This document shows positions 2,401 to 55,465 of a stretch of 64,000 bases of DNA, piece after piece. Source of the stretch: Massospora cicadina. Its lineage: Eukaryota > Entomophthoromycota > Entomophthoromycetes > Entomophthorales > Entomophthoraceae. A program made the translations under genes and the position numbers. The notes below the pieces were generated by a model. That model was given only the letters and a program-made list of their open reading frames with translations, ran no database searches and was not told where the DNA came from. Numbering within the stretch: position 1 is the stretch's first letter; every line of letters begins with the position of its first letter. Location of the stretch: the NCBI GenBank assembly GCA_022478985.1, contig JAKSZP010009548.1, forward strand, positions 1-64,000. The letters are read 5' to 3'.

Positions 2401-3480
2401 ATAATACAGACTGTTTAGAATGTTTCTTCTTTTTTTGGGTCACTTGGCCTTGTTGACACACCTTTGGCCTGGGTCTTTCACCTCAGCGACCTTCTGCACT
2501 CCAGTTTCCCTGACATAACCCACCATAAACTTTGGACCCTGAAGCTTGCCAAGTCAGTTGGAGCTTTTTATCAGCTTTCCTGACAATTTAGTGCTTTCTT
2601 CAAGGACCCCTTGAGTACCCCATGAACATTAACAATTAATGAAGACGAGTGAACTTCAAGAAATGACCTCTGATCCAGTGTGAATCGGATAATACCATAT
2701 ATCTTCAAGCCAGCTCTAAGGAAAAGTTTTCTTACTTCAGCAGATAAACACTGTAATATAGTGCTGGGTTTACCAGAAGCTGTTAAGTTCAAGTGTCCTT
2801 TAAAATCTCTCACGCAGGGTCAGTTGGATCTTTTTTTCCAGCTAGCCCAACATACTACTATGGTTTTCTTTAATCTATCTAATATACTTGTTTTAATTTC
2901 AAATTATTTTGCTAGATTATAGATTTAATTTATTTTTAAGATTTCTTGGAACCTCACATTTCACCTATGAATTAGTTTTGGTAAGCTGCCTGAGAGCCAG
3001 CCAACAAAATTCCCATCCACAACCACCATGCCACCGCTCTCTGCCATTATTGTCCCCTAGCTAACTCATTTCTATAATGAGGAAAATGGGCAATGTTCTC
3101 TGTTGTCCACGCATGCAGCCTCCTTTACTCTGCCATCCTTAATATACTGTACCTAAACTTAAACTTTAACTGTTAAAAATATCTGCCAACGCCTCCATAT
3201 GCTTGGAACACATTAAGCAGATCTTTGAGGAGAACCTTGCCTACCTCCCACCACGCAAATTCAAGAGCGAGTGCACAAGGGATATCTTACCTTTGTTGGT
3301 TACTGTTCTGTATGCCTTTCCGTTACAATCATCTCTGGGCTATGCTCCAAGTGCATCAATCTTTTTAAATCATTGTTACAGTTGAGATCAATGTTTCCCT
3401 ATTTTTGAACCCTTTGAAATCTCTTTATCCTTCTCAGGTGCAGAATTTTCATCTCTTGTCCCAGTTGAGGCTTGGAGTGG
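2400..3480 (+). pseudogene. Highly decayed Ty3/Gypsy protease-RT region
   Basis: Two weak pol landmarks appear in the expected order. A segment at about 2750-2810 (CNIVLGLPEAVKF) resembles the end of a chromoviral protease (ILGLPWL). A segment at about 3200-3290 (IFEENLAYLPPRKF) resembles the entry to Gypsy RT (VF...LPPRRPYDH). Everything else is broken. A 55 bp stretch near 2541-2595 has a similar copy at 17890-17940. Gypsy-2 inserted at the right end (AGTGG target). The assignment is tentative. Confidence 0.35.
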
Positions 3481-4630
3481 TGTTGGGATTTTTGCCCATT
3501 TTCCCAGCCTGCTAGATTACCTGGTGTCTCTAAGGTAAAAATTCCCTAAAGCGAAGTGAATTAGAAATTGGTTGGCCCAAATTTTGGAGGAACTACATTT
3601 GGGGGATATTGGGATAATCATCAGGTCATATCAATCGGGGATCAATCCAGATAGATACCTAATATCTCTTCAGGTGGAGCGGCTGACGAAATAGGGGCAT
3701 CTGATAGTGATTAACTATCAGGTGTACCAATTGTGATTGGTCAGGTTTCATCACCAACATATTGGGAATGTATGATGAGTTGCAAGGCGAGTGATGCCGC
3801 CTGCAACTAGAAAATCAAAAAGTTGTGATGTGACCTGCCATAATGGGTAAAAAGTCCCATTACCTAAGTAGGTCGTTAGCCAATTATGGTTAGTTTACTT
3901 GGATCAAGAGGAAAACGTTAGGGACACGTTTCCAACTCTTTCCGTTTGAGGTCTCAAGGATGTCCAATCTTAGAATCCTAGCCAGGGTGGGGAAGACCAT
4001 TGCTGCCGAGATGAGGAAGGGTGATTCAATGGAAACAGCTGCTGTTTCATCAAAGAGGTGTCAATCAAGTGTTAGATGGCCAAATCCCCTATAAATTCTC
4101 TAGGATTTACTATAATAAAAAACACACATTAACACATACACTTATACATACTACTACTTTAGAACATTAATAGTTTTATTGTAGATTCAGTAATAGTTAG
4201 AATATCAGCATCTAGCGTGAAGATTCCATCACAAGAATATTATTTCAGAAGGCAATAATTGGTAGACACTCAGAGAGAAGAGTAGAGATCCAAGTGGGGA
4301 TCTAGAGATGAAGGGAACCATGACTAAGGGATTGATGCCAACTATGTATTGGGCTGAAGGAGACTTTCATCAGAGGATCTTGACGAAGATAGAGTGGACA
4401 GTAATATAGGGAACAAATCCCTACAAGTACGACTATTGAGTATTTAATCAGAAATACTGGCTGAATCGTTGGGCCTGAAAATAGTTCCAACTCAACTATG
4501 GATAATAGTCTACATACTATTATCAGATTATATATTCTTATAACGCGAGGTGCACAAGGAAACTGAACCTGTGCAGTAAAAATATTAATGGGTTGACAAC
4601 CAATAATCAACTCTTTAGTAAATTTTTACA
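3481..4630 (+). repeat. Gypsy-2 5' LTR
   Basis: It starts TGTTGGGA and ends TTTTTACA, giving the canonical TG...CA ends, and is 1150 bp long. It aligns almost throughout with the 3' LTR at 16132-17280 (for example both contain the same AAACGTTAGGGACACG and CACACATTAACACATACAC blocks). Differences are scattered substitutions and a few small indels, so insertion is not recent. A TATA-like and transcription start region cannot be placed with confidence. Confidence 0.93.
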
Positions 4631-4633
4631 AGT

Positions 4634-4651
4634 TGGTGCTCACTACAGGGG
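4634..4651 (+). other. Candidate primer-binding site of Gypsy-2
   Basis: TGGTGCTCACTACAGGGG follows the 5' LTR end by a few bases. It starts with TGG, the complement of the tRNA CCA tail, as in tRNA-primed elements. I cannot name the tRNA by eye. Confidence 0.45.
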
Positions 4652-11461: not shown

Positions 11462-12860
11462 GCAGAAGGAAGAGGTGCTCTAATTATTCAGAAGATATCA
11501 GGAAGTATTCGCTCAGGTTGATTACATTTTGGGATGCGCACAAGGCGTAATTCACAAAGTCAACACTAGGGAAAATCTACCAATAAGGATGAGACCGATC
11601 CAAAGATCAAAAGCCACCAAAGCGGTAGTGGAAGATGAGATCAGCAAAATAGTAAAGCATGGGCTTCTAGTTCCATCATCAAGTCCCTGGGCAAGCCCAA
11701 TTTTGATTGTAAAGAAAAAAGATGGATCAAATCGGGTAGTGATTGAAAATCAGAGGCTGAATAAAATTACAAAGAAGGATTTGTATCCCCTACTGAGGAT
11801 TGACGATGTGCTGGCTCAATTAGGAGAAGCGAAGTATTTCTCTGCGATGGACCTAATCTTGGGATACTGGCAGATCGACTTTCCAGAAGAAGACCAAGAA
11901 AAATGTGCGATTATCACTGCAAAGGGGTTATACCAGCTGACTAGGATGCCCCAGAGTCTTTGTAATGCACCCACGACATTTCAGAGGGCCATGGACACAA
12001 TATTGAGTGACCTGAAGTTTTCATGCGTCCTGGTATATCTGGATGATATCATTGTGTTAGTAAAATGTTTACTGATCACCTTCAGCACTTGGAGGAAGTT
12101 TGTTAAGAGACTGTCCGCGACTAGCCTAAAGATCAAGCCACAGAAGTGCCACTTCTTCAAGAAGGAGCTTGAATACCTGGGATTTGTGATTAATGCAAAT
12201 GGATTGCAGCCACAACCCTGGAAGATAGCAGCTATTGAGCAGATGGCTGTGCCAAAAAGTGTCTGAGATATCCAAGTATTTCTTAGGATAGTCAGATACT
12301 ATAGAAGATTTTACTGGGACTTCACCCGAATAGCCAAGCCTTTGTTTCAATTATTAAAGGATCCAAAAAGAGGATTCATATGGTATGAGGAGGCCCAGAG
12401 TTCCTTCGATGAATTATGCTGGTACCCAATAAAAATTGTAGATTCTTAAATATCTGAATTTCAATTAGGAGTTTGTCATTCAAACTAATGCTTTGTTGAC
12501 ATTGATTGGCGCTGTACTGAGTCAAGTAGATGAACTTGGGGATGAACATCCAGTGGCATATGTGAGCTGGACACTCTCAGCCGCTGAGAGGAATTACACC
12601 ATGACTGAGCATGAATGCCTTGTGGTCATTTACACTTGTAAGCAGTTTCAGGTTTATGTCCATGGAACGCACTTTAAGGTGGTGATGGACCACTCTTTGC
12701 TGCGTTGGCTGCACAATTTATGGGAACCTGAAGGATGACTGGCCTGATGGGCATTTAAGCTTCAGGCTTATGATTATGAGATAGTCCACCGAGTGGGGGC
12801 TTCTCACCAGAATGTGGATGGCTTATCATGGTTACCAATGGTCCAGTTGGTATATCCGCA
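11462..12860 (+). pseudogene. Gypsy-2 reverse transcriptase and RNase H
   Basis: RT is nearly intact from 11529 to 12266. Visible blocks include SSPWASPILIVKKKDGS, DLYPLLRIDDVL, FSAMDLILGYWQI, MPQSLCNAPTTFQRAMD and the catalytic VYLDDI near 12035. Thumb and connection motifs (EYLGFVINANGL) follow; then a stop at 12264 and further breaks before RNase H at 12493-12740 (GAVLSQ, ERNYTMTEHECLVV, FKVVMDHSLLRWL). RT copies the genomic RNA and RNase H removes it. The first RNase H Asp region (normally DAS) is altered near 12488. Sequence is closest in layout to Gypsy-3 of this window. Confidence 0.93.
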
Positions 12861-16127: not shown

Positions 16128-16131
16128 TATG

Positions 16132-17280
16132 TGTTGGGAGTTTTACCCATATTCCCAACCTGTAAGATTACCTGGTGTAGCTAAGGGAAAATTCCCTAAA
16201 GCGAAGTGAATCAGAAATTGGTTGGCCCGAATTTTGGAGGAACTACGTTTGGGGGATTTTGGGATATTTGTCTGGTCATATCTGTTGGGGGATTGATCCA
16301 GATGAATACCTAATATCTCGTCGGGTGGAGCAGCTGACGAAATAGGGGCATCTGATAGTGATTAACTATCAGGTGTACCAATTGGGATTGGTCAGGTTTC
16401 ATCACCAACATATTGGGAATGTATGATGAGTTGCAAAGTGAGTGATGCCTTCTTCAACTAGCAAATTGATTGGTTGGTGAAGTGATCTGCCATAATGGGT
16501 AAAAAGCCCCATTACCTAAGCAGGTCGCTAGCCAATTATGGTTGGTTTGCTTGAATCAAGAGGAAAACGTTAGGGACACGTTTCCAACTCTTTCCGTTTG
16601 AGGTCTCAAGGATGTTCAACGTTGGAATACTAGCCAGGATGGGGAAGACCATCGCTGCTGAGTTGAGGAAGGGTGATTTAATGGCAACAGCTGCTGTTTC
16701 ATCAAAGAGGTGTCAACCAAGGGTTAGATGGCCAAATCCCCTATAAATTCCCTAGGATTTACTATAATAAAAACACACATTAACACATACACTTATACAT
16801 ACTACTACTTTAGAACATTAATAGTTTTATTGTAGATTCAGCAATAGTTAGACTATCAGCATCCAGTGGAAGTTCCATCTCAAGGATATTATTGCAGAAG
16901 GCAATAATTGGTAGACACTCAGGGAGAAGAGTAGAGATCCAAGTGGGGATCTAGAGATGAAGGGAACCATGACTAAGGGATCGATGCCAACTATGTATTG
17001 GGCTGAAGGAGACTTTCATCAGAGGATCTTGACGAAGATAGAGTGGACAGTAATATAGGGAACAAATCCCTACAAGTACGACTATTGAGTATTTAATCAG
17101 AAATACTGGCCAAAGTGTTAGGACTGAAAATAGTTCAAAACTCAACTATGGATAAAAGTCTCCATACTATTACTGGATTATGTATTCTTACAACGCGAGG
17201 TGCACAAGGAAACTGAACCTGTGCAGTAAAAAGGTTACTGTGTTGACAACTGATAATCAACTCTTTAGTAAATTTTTACA
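16132..17280 (+). repeat. Gypsy-2 3' LTR
   Basis: 1149 bp, TGTTGGGA...TTTTTACA, aligned with the 5' LTR at 3481-4630 and followed by the AGTGG target duplication at 17281-17285. Many differences between the two LTRs are transitions. Confidence 0.93.
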
Positions 17281-17285
17281 AGTGG

Positions 17286-17880
17286 GTTCAGTTGGAATTC
17301 ACCCAACTATGGATGAAGCCTCTACTTTGTGGCCACGTTTTATTAGAATTTAGTTACTATTAAGATACCAATGTGTGCTCTCCGTTTGCTCAGGTTTTTG
17401 TATTTCAATGAATTAATGCTTAACAATGTAGAAACAATCTGTACTCTCAGTCAATTGGGTTGATCTACTTCAAGGTATCAGCCGCTTCTAAGACTATTGG
17501 GGATTGATCTTGATAGCATTTAATTACCACGATCTAAAAAGCAATTGATGCTAAGGATTGATAGTTTATATTAGATATTTATTTCAGTTTACTAGTGATT
17601 GATGCTGAGGACAAAACAACAAATATTGCTGGCAATTAAGGCTACAGGTTTCTAAATAGGCAAGGAATACAATTGTCTTTGGTCGCCTAAGTAATTCATC
17701 TGCCTTAAGCTTCAATTGGATTTCATATTCAATATCAATTTTATCCTAGTAATTTAGATAGTATGACATTTTACCTAATAAACTATCACTTCTTTTACCT
17801 GACCATCTAGCTGTAGGCTAACTTCAATGATAGTTAAGTTAAGGCTTTAATCCTTTGGGGTAATCCACTGGTTAATTTAG
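17286..17880. other. No feature recognised
   Basis: AT-rich DNA with no long frame. It is the continuation of the target into which Gypsy-2 inserted. It may be decayed LTR or chromovirus sequence but carries no motif that I can defend. Confidence 0.4.
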
Positions 17881-18720: not shown

Positions 18721-19195
18721 ATATTACCAGTTTAAATGATTAGTAGTCTACTTTTTAAAAAGATATCCCTTGTTCAACTAGACTATTCCATATGTCAGAC
18801 ATCTGGATGCTTGTCATTAAAGGAATTTCAAAATGTCTGATAGCTTAAATCATTTCCTTAATTCTAATAATAATTTACCAAAAAAATAGACAAACTATCT
18901 ACTGAAGTTCACCCTCACACTAAATTGAACTTATCTATATATAGTTTAATAAAAGTTGACCCCTTTTATAATATGTAGGGGTTACAAATTAGAAAAATAA
19001 TCAAGCAGCCAAATAGAAGCCATAATCAAGTCATATTAAACAAAACAAATTAATTATAAGGCGACTTATCAATTGATTTCAACTAAATTATTATAACATG
19101 GAGATGTCAATTGATCAATAGTCTTTTTTGTTTCAATCAATTATTCAATTGAATTCAAATTTTTAAAAGTTTTTACTTTTAACCACCTTTTAGCC
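18721..19195. other. AT-rich spacer, nothing recognised
   Basis: Strongly AT-rich with no long reading frame or repeat that I can identify. It separates the chromovirus relic from HAL-1. Confidence 0.4.
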
Positions 19196-19199
19196 CACA

Positions 19200-20985
19200 C
19201 TGCTAATAGTCTATATGAACAGATCAATACCTGCTACCCCCACATGTGGTGGCGATGCACTTCCTCCTAGCATTTATTGGCCGCCACTAAATCGCCCCTG
19301 GGCTGGCCCAGACACCCTTCAAACACTTTCAGTCATTACATCCCACCTCAGGACTTAGCTCACCACCTCGCATGCTCCCAGGTGGTAGAAGAAGACCACT
19401 GTTGCTCCTTAAAGCAACCTGCTTTTGGCCTTTGGGTTAAGTTTGGGAACCTCTTCCCCTACATGAGTGTGGCCATCATCGAGATGGCAACGCCAGTTTA
19501 CAAGCCCACCAGATTCATAGATCTCCTCACTTCTTTTGACATATAATATTGGCTTTTCTTGTGAATCCCATTCCATGGAGGCAGCAAAGCTGCCCTTAAT
19601 ATATAATAATACCCCTATCCCAACCATACAAACTCTCTTTCCTGATGAGGCCACACTGGTGGTCCAATTTACAGGCTTGCCCTCCCGCCTCTCCCCTGAA
19701 CGCCTTTGCTACAAGCTCACTGAGGGCTTGGCTGCCTACAGCGCCGACACCAGCTGTCATTCATGGCTTAAAATGGTGCTTATCATCTCACTGGGCCTCG
19801 CACAATTGCTACAATCCACCCATTCTTTCAGGAACCCACCTCGCAATACCTCACCACGCCATGATCAGATTAGCCCCTGATTATCCCTTTTGGGTGCGTG
19901 TCAAAAATGGCCGCGCAATCTGTACCTTATCTCTGAACTTGACCATTTAAAGTGAAAATACCCACCAGCTTTAATAGAAGCTTCATCCGCCACTCCTTCC
20001 CCTGGCGTAATCCCAACTGATGTTTCTACTAACTTTTTTGAATGGTGTTTAATTCTCCCTCCGCCACCCTTAACCACCAAAGATGTTGCTTCCACCGCTC
20101 CATTAAACAAGAACTGACTGCCAGAACCATTGTTGAGCAGATGGATGCTCAAATGCTGGTAAGATTGCTGTGGTCCACTGTGAATGGCCAATAAGCTTCT
20201 TCCACCTCACTAGCTCCTGTCGCAGGTCCAAAGCTGGTCGTGTCAAATCCAATTGACAGCTTAAAATGGATCAACAATGATGAAATTTCTTATAAAATTA
20301 GACTTGAATTTGCCTGGTCAGATTTTCCCCAACCCTGATTTAACTCTCCACTTCTTCTTTCTCCCTCATGACAGATTCCCAAATTTAAGAAAAGTATTTA
20401 TTAAAAAGGATGTCAATGTAGCTGCTGCCCCACCAACTTTCTTCTCCACCAAGCCCTCCATATGGTGATTGACCACTTTGCTATGGTTTTACCATCTCAG
20501 ATTTCCCTGTGATTTCCCTGAAGATGTAAATTTTGATATTGGAGAGCTCACAGTTTCAGCTGGCCAAACATGAGTCACTGTGACGAGATCTTCACTTTAT
20601 AATAAAACCCACCCCCAACCTACCAACAAAAATAAATCATTCATTTGTGTGTCTAACTAGTCACCTTTGCTGAATAACAACTCGCCCAATATGTAAGGCA
20701 ATACACACTGTTGGCCTCATTGACAAGGAGAACCCTAACCTCTTTCTCCTTATAACCTATGCTGCTGATGCTCCAACCCCCTTTTATCAACCTTTTCCCT
20801 CCACCTAAAGCTGGTGCGTGATGAGACACCCCTAACCCCTCTGTCCCTTTCTATTATAGAAGCTTAGACCAACTCTGCAAACCATGTTAGAAATTTTTGT
20901 TTTTTATATATAATCCCTTTGTTTGGCACAAGGAAAATAGTGATGCATGGAGGGTTCCCCCTTGGGTGGGCACCACTGTTACAAA
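19200..20985 (+). mobile_element. HAL-1: ORF1-only retroposon, tail type 2
   Basis: The frameshifted protein relics follow the same order as HAL-4. An N-terminal Pro-rich start (PATPTCGG, PPSIYW) is followed by PSNTFSHYIPPQDLAHHL and a LWVKFGNLFPY...AIIEMAT block. Next comes the LPSRLSPERL...LTEGLAAY block near 19675-19740. A decayed knuckle lies at 19920 (ICTLSLNL, Cys lost) and a SLKWINNDE segment near 20260. A C-terminal relic near 20780 (AADAPTPF) resembles the HAL domain. There is no endonuclease or RT. The 3' end (CCCTTTGTTTGGCAC, ...CACCACTGTTACAAAAAAA) matches the tail of HAL-5 and HAL-2. I found no target duplication, so the ends are approximate. Confidence 0.7.
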
Positions 20986-21464
20986 AAAATAGATGCCAAT
21001 TAAATTTCTGAATTACTGAATACTCTAAGTTTGGACAGAACGAAAAATTATAATGTTCCAATTGTCTAGAGACCACAAAAAAAAGTCTGGCCTCTCAATT
21101 TTAAATGCAACAACATGGATCAGAAATGAGTGATTGGAATCAATTTAGATTAAAATTTAGGAGTTACAGAAGTTGAAACTTCTTGTCAGAGTAAGTTGAC
21201 TGACGCATAAAGCAATATGCCAATACCAAAAATACAAAAGTGTTGTTGGGTCCATAAATTGTGGTCCCAGTAGTTCAATGTGACATTGGAAGAGCTTGAA
21301 GCCCATCTGTATTATGTGTACTTCCTTCTAACCTAATTAGATGAAGATTCTTTTACATACTAAGTAATGCTTGATCATGGGTTTTTTCTTAGGGTAAATT
21401 CTAAAATATTTTTGATAAAGAAGTATATAAACCTCATTATGCAATAAAAGTTAGTTTTTTACTA
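20986..21464. other. No feature recognised
   Basis: AT-rich DNA without a long frame, between HAL-1 and the small repeated reading frame. Confidence 0.4.
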
Positions 21465-28890: not shown

Positions 28891-28914
28891 TGCCACATTT
28901 CCCTAATCCTTTTT

Positions 28915-30690
28915 AGTATTAGTGATTTACAACCAAAGAGGGGGTCCTTTATGCACCTTTATTTACTTTAGCAAAACAAAGGGACTATTAGATAAAAAAA
29001 TTATAGCATGGTGCCGTGGCGTTTGCCTAAGCATCAATATCAGAAGGGGAAGAGGGCATGGGGAGATTCTCATCTGGCGCTAGTTTCTTCAGATGGCAGC
29101 AAAGGCAGATAGAAAGGGGGTGGAGAGTCAGAGGTTGAGGCAGAAGGAGAAAGAGGTGATGGTTCTCTTCATCAATAAGGCCAAAGGTGTGCATTGCCTT
29201 AAACATATTGGGTGATCTGGTATTCAGCAAAGGTAATAAATTCAGACACACAAATGAATGCCTTGATGCGGTGGCAAGCTTGAGGTTAATTTAAGTCAAA
29301 CAGATATGATCTCGCTATGTCAACAAATGTTCTGCCTGATGGAAATAGATTTTTCGTTATTAAAATCTGCTTCTAAAATCTATAAGGAAGTTAGGAATGG
29401 AAAACCCTTTCATTGTGGTTTAAATGTCATATAGAGGGGTTAGAGGAGAAGGGAGTTGGTGGGGTGCAGCAGATGCTTTGAAAGCCTTTTGATGAATATA
29501 TAAATTATTTTGGGAATCAGTTGAAAGGATGGAAATGTCAGTGTAAGGTCAAATCAAGTGTTGTGTGAAGAATTCTGACCAGGCAAAGCCAGGTTTAATT
29601 CTTTAGGTGACGTTCAATATCATAAATACATTTAAGGGCGTCAAAAAGATCTTAGTAATGCCAGAGCTGGGCCAGTGACAGGAGTTGTTTAAGTGGTAGA
29701 TGCTGATTTTCCGCGCACAGTGTACCTTGGCAAATCTTCCAGTGCATGAGCCGCCATCTACTTAGGATATTTCTGCCATTTGAGCTTTGGGTGTGCGGAG
29801 AAATGTCAGCAATACCTGCGGCGGTCAAGAGTGTAGGAGGGAGGATTGATCCCCATGTGAAAAGCATTTAAGCTCTATTGGTTGATTCTAGATGGAGGAG
29901 TGGCGGAGTGGCGGAGGCAGCTTCAGCAGAAACTGCTGAACGCTTGCGCTTTAAATGGTCTAGTTTAAAGCACAAGATACACATGGCGCCACCGTTTTTG
30001 ATGCATGCCCAGAATGGATGATCAGGGGAAGATCTGATCTTGGTGCGGGGTATCACAAGATGGGTGTTGTGACAGAAGTGGAATATTGTCACAAATGCGC
30101 GAGGCCTGGCGAGATTATTAGCACCATTAAGAACCATGAACTTTAACACAGTGTCAGTGCTGTAGGCAGAAAAGCCTTCTGTGAGTTCGTGGCAAAGACT
30201 TTCAGGGGAGAGGTGGGGGGAAGGCCAGTAAACTAAACTACCAGTGTGTACTCATCTGGAAAGAGAGCTTGTATGGTCGGTATAGGTATTTTTATATTGA
30301 AGTCAGCTGTGCGGCCACCATAATGTGGGCTTCACAAGAGAAGCCATGATAAAAGTACCCTTAAAGCGGAAATCTATAGATCCAGTAGGTTTTTAACCTC
30401 GTGGCTATCTTGATGATGGCCGCACTTGTTTAGGGGGAAAATTCCATACTTGACTTAAAGGCCAAAATGAAGGTTATTCTGAGAGAGCACCAGGGGGCTT
30501 TTTAGCACCGCCTAGGAGCATGTGAAGTGATGTTCTATGCCCCAAGGAAGGATGTAGCGACCAGACTTGTTTGAAGGGCTATCTGGGCCATCCATGGGCA
30601 TTTTGGCAGCAGCTGATAAATCCCAGTAGCATTGTGCCAACGACCCATGTGGGGCAGCAGGCGTCAATTGAGTCAACATAGGCTACGAGT
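28915..30690 (-). mobile_element. HAL-2: ORF1-only retroposon, tail type 2
   Basis: On the minus strand from about 30690 the N-terminal block (GPDSPSNKSGRYILPWGIEH) matches HAL-1. A block resembling AIIEMAT then follows near 30410. The knuckle region at 30020-29960 (FWACIKNGGAMCILCFKLDH) keeps two Cys and the His but loses the last Cys. The C-terminal end at 29030 (LPMPSSPSD) matches the ends of HAL-5 and HAL-4. The 3' tail (CCCTTTGTTTTGC, GACCCCCTCTTTGG, CACTAATACTAAAAA) pairs with HAL-5. Many stops are present. No endonuclease or RT. Confidence 0.65.
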
Positions 30691-30889
30691 GGTGCAGGCA
30701 AGAGGTAAGTTAAGCATAATACTTTTCTTAAAATTCTAATTAAATTGATCAAGTTATTGGAAAAACTAGAAAATCTCCACGTAGCCCTAATCTTCATTGT
30801 TGCAAATACCAGGGCTGAAAAGAATGGTTATAAATGCAGGGGACTTCGCAAAATGGCATTCTAGCAATTAAGATGCCTCAAAACCTAAT

Positions 30890-38420: not shown

Positions 38421-39623
38421 TCAAGAAAAATGGCGTTCAGGTTCTTTAAGGTTCAGCAACCAGCATAATGACACGTGATCTGTTACAACTTTAAACTTTA
38501 CCCCATGCAAGTAGACTCTTAATTGCTTATATGCGTAGATCACTGCTAAGCACTCCTGCTCAATAACAGTATAATTACGCTCATGGCAGTTCAGACTTTG
38601 ACTACAGTACGCTATGTGATGCTCCTCTCCCTCATTGTCTTTCTGAGAAAGTACTGCCCCAACAGCAGAAGGGGTCGCATCCATATGAATAATAAACTCA
38701 CTATCAAAGTTTGGATAGCATAACATTGGTGCACTGATCAGTGCTGTACGAAGTGTATCAAAAGTGTATTGACGACATTCCATCCATTTGAAAACAGTAT
38801 TTTTTAACAACTCAAATAGTGGCTCCCTAATACAGATAAAGTTAGGGATGAGGCGCCAGTAGTAAATGACCATTCCCAAAAATACCTGTATGTTGCATTT
38901 ACTATTAGGTGTAGTCATTTTGCTGATGGCCTCCACCTTAGCTGGCTTTGATTTCAGCCCTTTAGAGTATACCAAAAACTCCATATATTCCAACTGATCT
39001 TTAAAGAAGTTACATTTTTGAGGTTTAATTTTGATGTTCGCTTCAGCGAGCTGGCGGAGTACTGCTTCTAAGTGATCAAGGTGCTCCAAAAAGGTTTGAG
39101 AGAAAACGTTAATATCATCAAGGTATACAAGGACGCATGACAGCTTCAAGTCACCAAGAATAGTGTCCATGGTTCGCTGAAACGTAGCTGGGGCGTTACA
39201 CAGCCCTTGAGGCATCTGAATCAGCTGAAAAAGGACTTTGGAGATGATTATGAAGCATTTTTCCTGTTCTTCCATGGGTAGCTCGATTTGCCAGTAACCT
39301 GATATCAAGTCCATTGCTTAAAAAATAGCTCCCCTTAACTGATCCAAAGCATCGTCAATCCTTGGCAAAGGGTATAAGTCCTTTTTTGTAATACTGTTGA
39401 GCTTCCGGTAGTCTATTACTACACAGTTGGTGCCATCCATCTTTTTTACATTCAGAACAAGTGAAGCCCACGGACTCTTGGATGGTTCAAGCATCCCTTG
39501 CTCCAGCAACTTGTCAATTTCATTAGTGACAATGTCTTCTACTGCCCTTGATTGGCGGATTGGCTGAGATCTTATAAATGATCTACTCCTGTGTCTACTC
39601 AATGGACAACCCCCAGAGCACAC
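38421..39623 (-). pseudogene. Gypsy-3 reverse transcriptase and RNase H
   Basis: This is the best-preserved coding part of any LTR element here. After [18 protein letters not shown] and [12 protein letters not shown] there is one stop/frameshift near 39315. The frame is then open for 297 codons: DLISGYWQIELP, MPQGLCNAPATFQRTMD, VYLDDINVF (catalytic Asp pair intact, near 39130), LEYMEFLVYSKGL and IQVFLGMVIYYWRLIPNF. RNase H follows (IHMDATPSAVGAVLSQ, ERNYTVIEQECLAVIYAYKQ, KVVTDHVSLCWLL). It lacks only a few residues relative to Gypsy-2. Confidence 0.95.
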
Positions 39624-43021: not shown

Positions 43022-43032
43022 CCCACTATGAA

Positions 43033-44942
43033 ATACCTGAACTTCTTCTTTCTGCTTGAGCCTAGAGTTGAGAAATTTTGTAAAATTATAAAACTGAATA
43101 GCAATTCAGCTAGCCGCTTCCCTGACCCACTGATGTCCACGGCCCCACCTCCTGCTTTTCCAGTTTGTGGAAGAGGCAAAGCCTAACCCAGCATTTTCTT
43201 TTCAGGTGGAAATTGTGCTTGGACTAGTTCGTCCAGTCCTAACCAATATTTAGGCTGGTTTGTTCCACCTAAGGACCTCACCATTCACCTCACACAATCC
43301 CAGGTGGTGCCCCATTGCCCTCTCGTCCTGCCCCTCTCTCACATGTGTTTTGGCCTTTAGGTCAAATATGGAAGTTGTTCCCATATGCAGACAAACCCAA
43401 ATCAAAGTAACACAGCTGGTATGCAATCAACGGCTTCATCAATTAAACCCCTATAAGGGGTACTTTGACTTTGATTTTACAAGCAAAGCTGTTGCTGCCA
43501 CTGCAGCAACTATGCCTCTGGTTCTCCAGAACAACCCAATTTTCACAACGCGCACACATCTCCCCACTGACTCCAAGATGGTGGTTTAGTTAGCTGGGTT
43601 GCCTCTCATCTTCCCCCAGCAGTGCTTTATCAGGAGCTGATGGCATGTTTGGCAGCCTATGGCGCTGACCCCATCCTTCAATATGTGGTCACCAATGGAG
43701 CCACACGCTCTCTGGGCCTCAGGCTTTTGCCACAATCAGCCCTAAATTTACAAATATAGCTGACCAGATTCCCCCACGCTTTTTCATTGCTTCTGCCCAT
43801 GACCACCCATTCTGGGCCCACATCAAGGGCGGGTGGACCATCTGTACGTCCTGCTTTGAGTTGGACCACTCAAAGCGGAGTTTCCCCTTCCTCACTGCCT
43901 CTGCCGCCTCTACAATCTCAGCCATCAACTACTCATCTGCTGGCTACCCTGCAGCCCTCTCAGAATGGGGCAATCTTATCCCCCACCTATTCCAAAGCCT
44001 GCTGCCACTGATGCGTCTACAGCAGCCAATCAGACCCATCCTAAGTCTGGAGCCATCAATGCTCCCACCAATCAGGATTTGGCTTGGACAACAATTTGCT
44101 CCTAAGCCTCAACCCAATCTCCAGCCTCAGACATCCCTATTGAGGAAAACATGGACTTCTAGAACTTGACCCATGGTCCTCATTGGATGAAACTGACAAA
44201 TCAGGTAATGTAATTGAAGACTCTGAATTCGACATTAGAGAATTTATCCCAACACAATCCCCCATTGAGAACTCAGCAGTTTATGCCCCACACTCAAATA
44301 ATAATTTTTTATGCACCCAACACCATTTTGCTGTGGCAGCTGCTACCCAGTCTGATAAAATTTTTCCTCAACAATATTATATCCTGAACAGCGATGAAAC
44401 TTTCCAAAGGGCTTCCACCCTCCCATTCTTGCCCAGACCTGCCCCCAGAGAAAAAAACCATCCTCCAGCTACATAAACCTGCTGCAGATGCCATTCAGAT
44501 AGTGGTTGCAGCTTCACAATTCAAAACAAAAATAACTCAAGCTAACATTGCTTTAGTTTACCAACTTCCTGTTATCCGCATACAAGTGGGAAAGGGCTTG
44601 TCCACTTACCTGAGCGCCAATTATGACAATGATGATTTCTACAAACAACCAGTCCTCTTCGATCTCGCCCCCCATATTGCTGATAAACCCACGCCCTTGC
44701 TCTCTGCCTTGGCACGTGCTTTTTATGATGCAGATATAATGGATGAGCCCCCTGATCCCCCTTCCCCTTCCGCTATGGTGGGGTAAGTGGTTCACCGCTG
44801 TGCACATGGCTGGTTGTTTTTTTTTAGTCTTGCTGCTCATTTAGGGCAATTGGTTCAGGTTTTTGATTTGGGTTAGCTTTGATGCTTTTTTTAAGTAATG
44901 TCCATCCTGTGGTCAGTATAACGTGAATAAATTTATAATAAT
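43033..44942 (+). mobile_element. HAL-3: ORF1-only retroposon with LINE-type tail
   Basis: It is flanked by CCCACTATGAA at 43022-43032 and 44943-44953, an 11 bp exact duplication. It starts with a GAACTTCTT-containing leader resembling that of HAL-4 and carries one degraded protein gene. It ends TGTCCATCCTGTGGTCAG, then GTGAATAAATTTATAATAAT, a variant of the LINE 3' tail. No endonuclease or RT. Gypsy-3 inserted five bases into its left duplication. Confidence 0.82.
43133..44786 (+). pseudogene. HAL-3 ORF1-like protein
   Basis: The ATG at 43133 gives MSTAPPPAFPVCG, matching the HAL-4 start (MSLALPPATPVWG). Frameshifted relics follow in HAL order. The knuckle at 43843-43884 reads CTSCFELDHSKRSF, with the last Cys changed to Phe. 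An acidic motif ETDKSGN lies near 44190. The C-terminal domain near 44660-44786 (DLAPHIADKPTPLLSALARA, then DPPSPSAMVG and stop) is well kept. Predicted role is RNA binding for its own RNA or that of the partner LINE (inference). Confidence 0.7.
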
Positions 44943-44953
44943 CCCACTATGAA

Positions 44954-50306: not shown

Positions 50307-50536
50307 TTCCTCCACACAGACCCTTTCCTTCACACCTGCTCCATAGCAGGGAAAACCCCCTCGGAGTAGTGCGCCAACCCCCTCATACCTGGCAGTCCCG
50401 CTGGCAAAAGGGGTAACTGAGTACCCTGGGGTGCAATTTTGTATCTGTCAGTTATTTCCTTAGTTTTACGTATATTTGGTAATGTCCATCCCCTGGTCGG
50501 CCTACCTCAGTTAAATAAAATTTACGCTTTAGGGAA

Positions 50537-51326: not shown

Positions 51327-51339
51327 GTTTGCCACTATT

Positions 51340-53236
51340 GAACCTTCTTTGAACCGCTCAAAGTCACTTTTGAGAGATTTTAAATTTAAGTTTATTTATC
51401 CACAGCCATCTGCCCAAACCTATTCTTTGATGTCCTTGGCTCTGCCGCCTGCCACCCCAGTGTGGGGCAGCAGTGCACCCCCACCTAGCGTTTTCCGCCC
51501 TGCAGGCAAGCGCGTTTGAATGGGTTCAAACAGCCCGCCCACTGCTTCCAACCGTTTTGTCCCCCCACGGGACTTAGCGCTCCACCTGGCGCGCGTCCAC
51601 CCTTCTCGCCCCATCCTCTCGCCCTCCCTCGCTCTGCTATTCGCTATTGCCTCAGAGTGGACTATGGGCGTTTGTTCCCATATGCTGATAAGGCAATTAT
51701 TGACCTAGCCACTACAGCCTTTGCGCCAGCTGGCTTTATAGACTTCGGCCCTTTTAAGGGCTACTTTGGCGTTGGGTTCCAATCTGAGGAGGATGCTGAA
51801 GCGGCAGCACAAACTCCTCTAATTTATTAAAAACCCCCATTATCACAACCCGTACTCGCCTCCCTTCAGACACCACGCTAGTGGTATCCTTTGCAAATCT
51901 CCCATCCCACCTTCCACCCCAGATTTTGTATGACCAGTTGGTCGCGGGGCTCATGGCTTATGGCACTCAGCCCAACCTCATCTTTGCCATTCCATCTGGT
52001 GCAGAACGCCTTGCTGCTCCTCGTGCAACAGCCACCATCATACCACACCACCCTACCATAGCCCAACAAATCCCACCCCGCGCTAGTGTGCCTGCAGCGC
52101 CTGATCATTTCTTTTGGGCTTAGGTCGATAATGGTAGGCATATTTGTTCCCTCTGCTTTGGCCTCGAACATGCAAAAAGAGCGTGCCCTAAGGCCAAATC
52201 CGCTGATGCAGCTTCTGAGCCCCCTCTGGAGGTTCAGTATGGGGCGCTTTGCTGCCCCCTCCCACCCTCCAATCTCGTTCAGTGGGCCCACATGGAAAAT
52301 CAGCCCCACCCAAAACCTCCATCCTCACTCTCACACCTAAATCTACGCCAGCCAATCAGAGCAATGCTTGGACCATCATTCGCACCCAAGCAGCTGCCCA
52401 TTCGCCCAATCCTACCCACTCAAATTTAAGCGCCACTATTCCAGTGAACCAAAATCCATGGGATCTATTGGCTGAAACTGACGAATCAGGTAATATCCTC
52501 ATTAGTAAGCATACAGGTCAACCTCTCTGCCATGGCAATTATGGTCAGGCAGAATTTTTCCTTCCTGACTTTGATGAAACCCCTATCCCTCGCCACATTG
52601 CTCCTCTACCCAATACAGCCCCCTTCCAAAGTGACCACCAGCTCGCCTTAGCTGTGGTGGCCTCTCCTAATTGCCCAAAACTACGCACCGCGGTGGCCCA
52701 GTCAGTGGCTCAGCTCCAGCATGGCCTGCCCACCATCTTCTTCCCCCCGACTTCCCTGAATCTCCCTGCAGTGACATCTCAAAACTATTTGATGATGCTT
52801 AAATCGCTGTTATGAATGTCGCAACGCTTGCTTCATTCAACCCCTCAGCCAAAATCAACTGCCACAGTATCTCCCTTTTCACCCAACTTCCTGAAGCCCG
52901 CAAAGAAGCTGAAGTTCTCCTCGCAGCTTTTGTTGAAAAACTTTCCCAACATTATCTTGATGTAGAAGTAGAAAACTCCTACTACGCTGACCTCAGCCCC
53001 CACTATGCAGATGCCCCAACGCCCTGTCTCTCTGCTCTGATCTGGTACTGTAACCAAAACCCCTTGATCGTGGTGGGTCTTTCTGAAAACCAACCCCCGA
53101 CCCCTCCTCACCCTCTGCCATGGTGGGTTGAGAAGTTTTTGCTTCCCACCTGGTTAGTAGTTTGTTTTGCCATTTTTGAGTGTTGTGATCGGTACTGTCC
53201 ATCCCCTGGTCGGCGTACCTCAAATAAATCAAACAA
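51340..53236 (+). mobile_element. HAL-4: best-defined ORF1-only retroposon, LINE-type tail
   Basis: It is bounded by exact 13 bp duplications GTTTGCCACTATT (51327-51339 and 53237-53249), extendable to 18 with one mismatch. Between them lie a 90 bp leader, one protein gene and a tail TGTCCATCCCCTGGTCGG, then CGTACCTCAAATAAATC. That tail equals the 3' end of LINE-C and LINE-D. There is no endonuclease or RT, and 1.9 kb leaves no room for them. This is a complete non-autonomous retroposon moved by a LINE that recognises this tail (inference). Confidence 0.9.
51430..53131 (+). pseudogene. HAL-4 ORF1-like protein with extra C-terminal domain
   Basis: The start at 51430 gives MSLALPPATPVWGSS. Blocks in order, across frameshifts: SNRFVPPRDLALHLA; YGRLFPYADKAIIDLATTAF and YFGVGFQSEEDAEAAA near 51660-51815; NLPSHLPPQILYDQLVAGLM near 51895-51960, which parallels LINE-D ORF1; and a perfect CCHC knuckle CSLCFGLEHAKRAC at 52146-52187. 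A linker with an acidic ETDESGNI motif follows near 52480. The C-terminal domain near 52985-53035 reads SPHYADAPTPCLSAL, and the end at 53131 is SSPSAMVG. The knuckle and NLP block indicate a nucleic-acid-binding protein of LINE ORF1 type. The C-terminal domain is absent from LINE ORF1. About five frame breaks. Confidence 0.8.
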
Positions 53237-53249
53237 GTTTGCCACTATT

Positions 53250-54074: not shown

Positions 54075-54639
54075 AGTTTTCATTGGTTTACTTAATAAAG
54101 ATGATTTTCTGATTTCAAAAATTAGCTTTCAATTTAAGTTTTATTTAAAAATATAGAGGATGAAACTTCTTTATACAAGATTGTCAGTTCATATTTATAC
54201 TAGCCTAGGTGGAAGAGTGAGTCTTGTTCTCCGCTGAGTCCACAGGCAACTTCTCAATGGCGGGCATAACCTGAGAATCTAGAACCTCAATTTCCTTATC
54301 AAGGACAATTCTAGCGCTAGTATTGGATACCTTTGCAGTTGTAAAAACTTTTACACATTTATTATATCACTTCAATTAACTCTCAAAGCCTGGACTTTTG
54401 TTGACATCCTTATCTATAGATTTTATGTTAAATATAAAAGTTTTGCCAGCCTCTGAAATTTCACAATTGCCATTTCTGAGAGGCTTGTCTAGCACGTCAG
54501 GGAATTATGGTGCTGCTTCCAAAGTGGCAGCCAATCAAAATTTAAGGAAAGTTAAAAATTTTGAAAGTTTGACTGGATTACAGAATCCTGAGTCGATGGC
54601 TGAACTAATTTCAGCTGAGCTGCCATGATTGACAGCATG
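54075..54639. other. Unassigned segment 5' of HAL-5
   Basis: Contains a 76-codon plus-strand frame (54398-54628) without known motif. It may include the 5' part of HAL-5, but I cannot align it to HAL-1, HAL-3 or HAL-4. Confidence 0.3.
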
Positions 54640-55465
54640 AGGCCAATCAGCTCCGGCCACAACCCCTATTCCTGTGGCTGGCCCAGCGCTGGCCAAATCC
54701 AATTCATTTGAGGCTCTCAAATGGATTGATGAGGATGAACAGCCATACCACGTGAAACCTAATTTTTGCTTTGGAGATTTTCTTCGTTGACCCTGCCAAA
54801 TTGTGTTCCTGCCGTTTTCATCCAAAAAACGAGTTTCCCATTTATAAAATATTAACAAAATGGCAGTTGTGGCTGCAGCTGCCCCAACCAACACCCTCCT
54901 CCGCCAGCAACTCCATGGGTAAATGGAGCCCCTTGTTAAGGGTATTCCTATCCCCAATTTTCCTCATGATTTTGAAGAAGATGCGAAGTACAAAATTGAG
55001 GAGCTTGTTTCATTGTGGGCTGCGCTTTCATCAATGCAGCAAAAACTTCTCTTTTTGACCCCAATTATCCCAAAACCCGCAGGCTCATCAAGTCATTTAC
55101 TTGCGTGCTGGCTCTTATCATTTTTGCTGAGTATCAACTTGCTCAATATGTTGAGGGGATGGACACCGCCAGCCTCATTAATAAAGAAAACCCCCAACTA
55201 TACCTTTTTACGCCCCATGTCGCTGATGTTCCCACCCCAATGCTGTCTGTCATGGTCCACCAGCTAAAGCTGGCGCCGGCTAAAAGTCTCCCCGCAGCCT
55301 CCTCGCCATCTGATATGGCTTCCTAGGCTGGTAGCCTAGGGGCTATATTAAGATTTTTTTACTTTATATTAATCCCTTTGTTTGTCCCATTTGTGAATAA
55401 AGATGCGTGGTGGCTCCCCTTTTGGGTTGAACCACTAGTACTAAAAAAAGAGAGGCTTGTCCAGC
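54640..55465 (+). mobile_element. HAL-5: 5'-truncated ORF1-only retroposon, tail type 2
   Basis: Only the 3' half is present. A SNSFEALKWIDEDEQPY block near 54700-54750 matches HAL-1 (SLKWINNDE). A helical region follows (DFEEDAKYKIEELVSLWAAL), then a C-terminal domain at 55080-55326 (LFTPHVADVPTPMLSVMV, ending ASSPSDMAS and stop). The 3' tail at 55372-55453 reads ATCCCTTTGTTTGTCCC, AATAAAGATGCGTGGTGG, ACCACTAGTACTAAAAAAAG. It can fold GTGGT/ACCAC and CCC/GGG into a hairpin. 5' truncation is typical of target-primed elements. Confidence 0.7.

What the first reader, a model, noticed from the sequence alone, without database searches (positions are those of the whole stretch)
51340..53236. A family of protein-coding, ORF1-only retroposons (HAL-like) parasitic on LINEs
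HAL-4 is a complete 1.9 kb insertion with exact 13 bp target duplications, a leader, one gene and a LINE-type tail, but no endonuclease or RT. Four relatives occur in the window (19200, 28915, 43033, 54640). The gene product shares the NLP...GLM-YG block and CCHC knuckle with LINE-D ORF1. Mammalian HAL1 elements ('half-a-LINE') have this logic. I know of no well-described fungal equivalent, but I cannot search.
Basis: partly seen in the sequence, partly recalled or inferred. Interest (0 to 1): 0.88.

Follow-up and report, generated by a model that had tools for sequence, protein, structure and literature searches.

The report
Gene-carrying retroposon parasitic on LINEs
In the genome of what is very probably the cicada fungus Massospora cicadina there is an abundant mobile element, about 1,900 bases long, that carries a gene for an RNA-binding-type protein but no copying enzyme, and appears to spread by borrowing that enzyme from larger LINE elements whose 3' end signal it shares.

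Summary
Window 51340-53236 is a complete insertion with identical 13-bp target duplications, in a high-copy family of what is very probably Massospora cicadina. Of the 40 best genome copies, 36 have duplications of 10-26 bp (0 of 240 mismatched flank pairs). An exact 5' motif occurs 1592 times and an exact ORF-end motif 1462 times; of 100 listed 5' motifs, 54 have the ORF end 1788-1809 bp on.

About 90% of the element is one gene (about 566 codons, RRM-like region plus CCHC); no endonuclease or reverse transcriptase. Its core is homologous to LINE ORF1; its C-terminal half was not found in the LINEs compared.

Of the 3' region only the last ~45 nt matches LINE-D; that tail forms a covarying hairpin in both. 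Variants shared among copies are richer in synonymous changes than private ones, and families diverge with omega mostly 0.2-0.4 in the first half, so the protein has probably been selected.

The "ORF1-only LINE parasite" logic is supported, but it is not literally half of the LINEs seen here. It looks like an older lineage (three clades, two tail types) working like HAL1 or HeT-A. Open: no copy with the whole frame open was seen (homopolymer frameshifts, perhaps assembly error), and the second tail's LINE.

The parts
51327..51339 (.). left target-site duplication GTTTGCCACTATT
51340..53236 (+). complete ORF1-only retroposon (HAL-4 copy)
51355..51376 (+). 5' leader hairpin CGCTCAAA...TTTGAGCG (one mismatch in this copy)
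   Evidence: copy L002 folded; 18-mer CCGCTCAAAGTCACTTTT in 33 of 40 copies
51430..53131 (+). gag/ORF1-like gene, ATG (MSLAL) to stop after SAMVG; frame-broken in this copy
   Evidence: read
52145..52186 (+). CCHC zinc knuckle (CSLCFGLEHAKRAC)
   Evidence: LINE homology
52348..53131 (+). C-terminal half (from ANQSNAW to SAMVG), shared among the retroposon families, not found in the LINEs compared
53191..53233 (+). tail shared with LINE-D, with covarying hairpin 53191-53219
53237..53249 (.). right target-site duplication GTTTGCCACTATT
43033..44942 (+). related family (HAL-43), same layout and tail type; duplication CCCACTATGAA at 43022-43032 and 44943-44953
19128..20990 (+). related older family (lineage II) with a different 3' tail
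28910..30765 (-). related older copy (lineage II)
54600..55448 (+). 5'-truncated lineage II copy (start approximate) that keeps the C-terminal segment
45301..50520 (+). LINE-D: ORF1 and ORF2 LINE of the clade proposed to supply reverse transcriptase (start approximate); tail hairpin about 50478-50506

Best explanation
HAL-4 is a non-autonomous non-LTR retroposon that encodes its own RNA-binding-type protein. Its RNA is translated into a gag-like protein (RRM-like region, CCHC knuckle, own C-terminal part) that probably coats its own RNA in cis. The 3' end carries a ~45-nt hairpin tail like that of the resident LINEs. The ORF2 protein of a LINE-D-type element is proposed to recognise this hairpin, nick a site of the form Y|AAAA and copy the RNA into the genome by target-primed reverse transcription. 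Shown: complete insertions with duplications, a nick preference, the shared covarying hairpin, no endonuclease or reverse transcriptase. Well supported: selection on the protein. Inferred: that the LINE-D clade is the enzyme source, and cis packaging.
For: Full-length copies with 10-26 bp duplications, 36 of 40 vs 0 of 240; nick context T or C at -1 in 28 of 36 and A at +1 in 25 of 36. In 20 of 20 LINE-D ORF2 loci retrieved (136 scored, window copy included), of the last 300 nt of HAL-4 only the last 33-46 nt match. The tail hairpin covaries between retroposons and LINEs (pair 9-33 UA or AU; pair 11-31 CG, GC or AU): 86.4% of cells paired, 10 both-side-changed cells vs 5.0 shuffled, 1 of 500. 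Within the family, shared variants are 34 synonymous and 42 nonsynonymous vs private 103 and 280, one-sided p=0.002; the two shifted frames give p=0.15 and 0.75. Between families, omega in first-half segments where it can be computed is mostly 0.2-0.4. ORF1 homology: hhalign probability 96.7, E 4e-10, 147 columns. Annotated proteins P0001 and P0002, among others, run from before the CCHC into the C-terminal half.
Against: No copy with the whole ORF open was seen: A and B are one frame in only 5 of 40 copies, C and D in 2 of 40, and B/C is read as five C in all 38 copies that the pattern recognised, although the six-C form occurs 888 times genome-wide. The shared/private test left out the B/C overlap, where shared variants are 2 synonymous and 6 nonsynonymous in the B frame and 0 and 5 in the C frame. 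With transitions alone it is weaker (p=0.06; p=0.002 after also removing CpG-type contexts); five settings were tried. Omega is 0.25-0.6 in the second half with one short segment at 1.1, dS is near saturation, and protein-guided alignment favours codon positions 1 and 2. Two of five hairpin measures do not exceed shuffles (pairs with both sides changed, 328 of 500; further pair types, 248 of 500). The enzyme source is not demonstrated, and lineage II carries another tail whose LINE was not found.
Confidence: 0.8

Rival explanations
1. An ordinary internal-deletion product of a LINE whose full-length parent (same ORF1, plus ORF2) still exists or existed recently; the gene is a relic and is not needed for spread.
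For: Core ORF1 homology and the shared tail. 46 of 100 five-prime motifs have no exact ORF-end motif at about 1.8 kb. Frameshifts are frequent. LINE ORF1 regions were seen in only a few copies.
Against: The LINE ORF1 regions seen are of another type (window LINE-A, C and D, and L073). The C-terminal half is missing from the LINEs compared. The only same-strand ORF2 sequence downstream among 48 loci (L028) is a LINE into which the element inserted. Selection signals. At least 23 of the 46 unlinked copies carry the mid or six-C motif at the expected place (from partial lists, so a lower bound).
Confidence: 0.12
2. A large SINE-like element, mobilised only as RNA through the LINE tail; the ORF was inherited from a dead gene and is carried passively.
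For: Of the 3' region only the tail is shared with LINE-D. Most copies are frame-broken in this assembly.
Against: Codon-position pattern between families, for example 0.62, 0.71 and 0.38 identity at positions 1, 2 and 3. Shared vs private contrast only in the coding frame. Conserved C-terminal segment in HAL-4, HAL-43 and one lineage II copy.
Confidence: 0.07

Closest known systems
HAL1 (half-L1) retroposons of mammals
   Same: ORF1 only, mobilised by a LINE, coding capacity kept for long; passage in PMC3627910, which cites Bao and Jurka 2010 (not held).
   Different: HAL1 derives from L1. Here ORF1 has RRM-like and CCHC parts, the tail is a structured ~45-nt hairpin with an AATAAAT end, and the protein has a C-terminal half not seen in the LINEs compared.
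HeT-A of Drosophila
   Same: Non-LTR element with gag but no pol, dependent on a reverse transcriptase from elsewhere (passages in PMC5537684).
   Different: HeT-A extends telomeres. This element inserts with target duplications in unrelated flanks.
MoTeR2 of the fungus Magnaporthe oryzae
   Same: Fungal non-autonomous partner of a non-LTR element; passage in PMC7367193.
   Different: MoTeR2 shares 860 bp at the 5' end and 77 bp at the 3' end with MoTeR1 and has the RT region replaced by an unrelated 786-bp stretch with no obvious function; it sits in telomeres.
LINE-dependent SINEs with a shared tail (recalled)
   Same: 3' tail shared with a LINE.
   Different: SINEs carry no selected protein gene.

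Membership tests
HAL1 (half-L1) | encodes ORF1 only, no EN or RT | tested here: met
   neither half of the gene matches a Pfam family above its cut-off; complete insertions end at the tail with a duplication, 36 of 40
HAL1 (half-L1) | derived from the L1 clade | tested here: inconclusive
   ORF1 core matches the resident LINEs' ORF1, but the clade of those LINEs was not determined; an RRM plus CCHC layout differs from L1 ORF1 as recalled
HAL1 (half-L1) | coding capacity kept under selection | tested here: met
   with the limits stated there
HeT-A | gag without pol | tested here: met
HeT-A | addition to chromosome ends | tested here: not met
   insertions with duplications and sequence on both sides, 36 of 40
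LINE-tailed SINE | 3' tail shared with a LINE | tested here: met
LINE-tailed SINE | no selected protein gene | tested here: not met
LINE-tailed SINE | RNA polymerase III promoter | not tested
   promoter boxes were not searched for
LINE (autonomous) | ORF2 with endonuclease and reverse transcriptase | tested here: not met

The most novel reading that the evidence does not exclude
These elements are not recent halves of LINEs but a long-lived, independently evolving lineage of LINE satellites with their own gag (including a C-terminal part that the LINEs seen here lack), which has changed its enzyme supplier at least once by changing its 3' tail, while its protein stayed under selection.
Probability: 0.45. 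Interest if true: 0.75.

Novelty: new variant of a known kind. Interest (0 to 1): 0.62.

Why it matters
Why a retroposon that borrows its reverse transcriptase should keep its own ORF1 protein is an open question about cis preference. Here it can be asked with a very large natural sample: more than two thousand exact copies of one gene motif in one family, three clades, two tail types, a covarying hairpin that may mark the enzyme interface, and a measurable selection signal. It also extends the HAL1 and HeT-A way of life to an early-diverging fungus. Eight answered searches of the open-access library listed no fungal case of an ORF1-only LINE parasite that I could recognise, only MoTeR2 as a looser parallel; most subscription papers are not held there.

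Tried and rejected
Ideas dropped. (1) Half of LINE-D: rejected because only the core and the tail match. (2) Passive SINE: disfavoured by selection. (3) Programmed frameshifting: not needed, because all three frame junctions lie at homopolymer runs and the assembly is Nanopore R9 with Illumina polishing; not excluded. (4) Partner of the lineage II tail: not found; the three further tail copies in held flanks (L011, L025, L057) belong to lineage II copies. (5) Structure models were poor (pLDDT 44 and 39). The 26 best Foldseek hits of the second are tandem-RRM proteins, at low TM-scores (0.14-0.21 by query) and rmsd 6-16, used only as a hint. (6) Homologues outside Massospora: none in three searches; the tool only reaches relatives sharing exact 5-residue words. 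(7) The HAL fraction in flanks was too small a sample to use. (8) L044's translation could not be aligned because of stops and was dropped from that alignment; LINE-B was dropped from the tree for too few residues.

Full report
What the window is. The window is part of a 1.47-Gb genome in 16,968 contigs. All 18 proteins listed for the first half of the gene are Massospora cicadina hypothetical proteins (identity 65-100% over 5-85% of the query), and a 1.488-Gb assembly of that species is described in PMC9584336 (part 1 of 3 of the text seen). The species is therefore very probably Massospora cicadina. Contig numbers differ (19,694 there), so the exact assembly version is not established. That assembly is Nanopore R9 plus Illumina polishing, which matters for frameshifts at homopolymers.

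The element. The insertion is 51340-53236 with identical 13-bp duplications. The own-genome search scored 40 of 5216 first-look candidates: the window copy and 39 others, nearly full length and 95-96% identical to it. They were chosen by score, so this sample favours full-length copies. Pairwise divergence is 3.5% on average and 1.2-3.2% from the column majority. Of the 40, 36 have duplications at score 10 or more, lengths 10-26 and median 17, against 0 of 240 mismatched flank pairs. The four that fail are L004, L011, L018 and L040 (best scores 3, 6, 8 and 6). The nick context is T or C at -1 in 28 of 36 and A at +1 in 25 of 36.

Genome-wide counts not chosen by score. Exact 5' motif 1592, mid-gene motif 2167, ORF-end motif 1462, six-C junction 888, each with 0 in the reversed control. 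Of the 100 listed 5' motifs, 54 have the ORF-end motif 1788-1809 bp downstream, 4 have it at other distances within 8 kb (1588, 1955, 2625, 5391), and 42 have no exact copy of it. Of 92 ORF-end motifs on those contigs, 54 have the 5' motif at that distance upstream. Of 100 listed mid motifs, 49 have the ORF end at 1195-1278 bp and one at 2030. Of 60 six-C places, 25 are linked at 933-945 bp, with 0 in the upstream control. Exact motifs miss mutated copies, so the unlinked ones are not evidence of another structure, but they do not exclude one. There is no second spacing class.

The gene. In the window copy the frames are broken. Other copies show how the pieces join. Segments A and B are one open frame in 5 of 40 copies (L002 to L006) and C and D in 2 of 40 (L011, L017). 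No copy of the 40 has B and C joined; the run there is five C in all 38 that the pattern recognised. Annotated proteins P0001 and P0002 read through B and C in a way that needs one more C (inferred from the protein), and the six-C form occurs 888 times. All three junctions are homopolymers. The frame as a whole would run from ATG at 51430 to the stop at 53131, about 566 codons and about 90% of the element; no single copy open over this length was seen.

Protein relationships. The RRM-CCHC core matches LINE ORF1: hhalign probability 96.7, E 4e-10, 147 columns, 24% identity, and tblastn to LINE-D, A and C at E 5e-9 to 9e-5, not to LINE-B at 0.01. The C-terminal half gave no match better than E 1.6 to the five window LINE stretches and none at 0.01 to four of them; the weak profile match comes from first-half residues of fusion models in that alignment. 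It does match the related families, including the lineage II copy at 54600. Pfam gave no match to the gene above its cut-offs (one match of the second half, E 0.1, below cut-off); the LINE ORF2 pieces gave RVT_1, and zf-RVT below its cut-off. The structure model with the core has low confidence (pLDDT 39), yet its 26 Foldseek matches at E 1e-3 or better are tandem-RRM proteins, with low TM-scores. No sequence match in the Protein Data Bank for the first half.

Selection. Inside the family, variants shared by three or more copies should reflect the transmitted lineages and private ones decay after insertion. In the coding frame the shared ones are 34 synonymous and 42 nonsynonymous, the private ones 103 and 280 (odds ratio 2.2, one-sided p=0.002); the shifted frames give 1.4 and 0.8. 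With transitions only the result is 32 and 39 against 72 and 141 (p=0.06); with CpG-type contexts also removed 13 and 8 against 43 and 113 (p=0.002). Five settings were tried. The B/C overlap was left out of this test; there shared variants are 2 and 6 in the B frame and 0 and 5 in the C frame, which does not support selection in that stretch. Between HAL-4 and the 43033 family, codon identity is for example 0.62, 0.71 and 0.38 by position; omega where it can be computed is mostly 0.2-0.4 in the first half and 0.25-0.6 in the second, with one 42-codon segment at 1.1; dS is near saturation, often beyond computing.

The tail. In 20 of 20 LINE-D ORF2 loci retrieved (75,346 first-look candidates, 136 scored), of the last 300 nt of HAL-4 only the last 33-46 nt match. 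A hairpin in this tail was tested on 14 sequences chosen by me from HAL-4, HAL-43 and LINE-A to D: 86.4% of cells pair, ten cells change on both sides against 5.0 expected by shuffling (1 of 500 as high), and the covariation score exceeds all 500 shuffles and all slid versions; the number of pairs with both sides changed (3) and of further pair types (7) do not exceed shuffles (328 and 248 of 500). The structure was drawn from one of these sequences, and related sequences can exceed shuffles. The outer pairs differ between LINE-A/B/C, LINE-D and HAL-4 in a compensating way. The HAL-4 leader also folds into a hairpin in the copy tested.

Related families and history. The 43033 family (40 scored, 42 matches) has the same layout and tail kind; 6 of 10 copies have duplications at score 10 or more, against 1 of 90 mismatched pairs, though one of the six (L042) has two mismatches and one (L050) lies about 20 bp off the expected end. 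The 19128 family is older (68-74% to the window copy apart from one short piece) and has the same length of about 1.86 kb but another tail. A tree of the RRM-CCHC region groups the LINE rows with support 100, lineage II with 100 and HAL-43 with 98, and sets HAL-43 plus lineage II apart from HAL-4 plus LINEs with 100. Rows were laid on a HAL-4 query, which biases placement, and the LINE branch attaches next to one HAL-4 copy, so the order inside is tentative. Rooted on the LINEs, the tail would have changed once. The partner LINE of lineage II was not found.

No parent with ORF2 seen. Against whole LINE-A, C and D, 48 loci (39 HAL-4, 9 HAL-43; 35 kb of downstream flank in all) show LINE sequence downstream on the same strand in 2: in L028 ORF2 sequence that continues from the upstream side, with a 16-bp duplication, so the element sits inside a LINE; in L004 the 5' end of another LINE 0.7 kb away. 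L030 and L038 have LINE sequence on the opposite strand (an earlier search with two ORF2 pieces in 16 loci found none downstream). Of three LINE-D copies whose upstream part was fetched, one (L073) is full length with a LINE-type ORF1; L071 and L072 match LINE-D only in their later parts.

Mechanism. Most likely the transcript makes the gag protein, which binds its RNA; the ORF2 protein of a LINE with the same hairpin copies it by target-primed reverse transcription. The insertion mode, the shared hairpin and the missing enzyme are shown, selection on the gene is well supported; the enzyme source and cis binding are inferred. Similar counts of 5' and ORF-end motifs (1592, 1462) suggest little 5' truncation, but the mid motif is commoner (2167) and motif conservation differs.

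Literature. PMC3627910 (passages) says HAL1 encodes ORF1p only and that in guinea pig its coding capacity was kept for about 29-44 million years, citing Bao and Jurka 2010, which is not held. PMC5537684 (passages) describes HeT-A as lacking pol. PMC7367193 (passages) describes MoTeR2. PMC11105155 (one passage) reports an expansion of LINEs in M. cicadina after its Ty3 expansion. No fungal ORF1-only LINE parasite was recognisable in the listings (no paper); that library holds open-access papers only.

Noticed in passing
window 53191-53219 and 50478-50506: The LINE and retroposon tails share a hairpin whose outer pairs covary between LINE-A/B/C, LINE-D and HAL-4.
   Followed up: yes
L025: A HAL-4 copy has inserted into a lineage II copy (flank matches to the 54600 copy on both sides), giving relative age.
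   Followed up: partly
L028 and L038: HAL-4 copies inserted inside LINE ORF2 sequence, one in the same and one in the opposite orientation.
   Followed up: partly
L071: LINE-D sequence is present only in its later part, with frames that look like a Ty3-type polyprotein upstream (recalled resemblance).
   Followed up: no
window 3480-4637 and 16131-17287: Pair of 1.16-kb direct repeats, 91.6% identical, unexplained.
   Followed up: no
window 11484-12266 and 38421-39317: Open frames that look like Ty3-type reverse transcriptase (recalled resemblance, not scanned).
   Followed up: no
annotated proteins P0001 to P0023: These public 'hypothetical proteins' of Massospora cicadina match these retroposons (P0001-P0021) or LINE ORF1 (P0022, P0023), so at least some are parts of mobile elements and not host genes.
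   Followed up: partly
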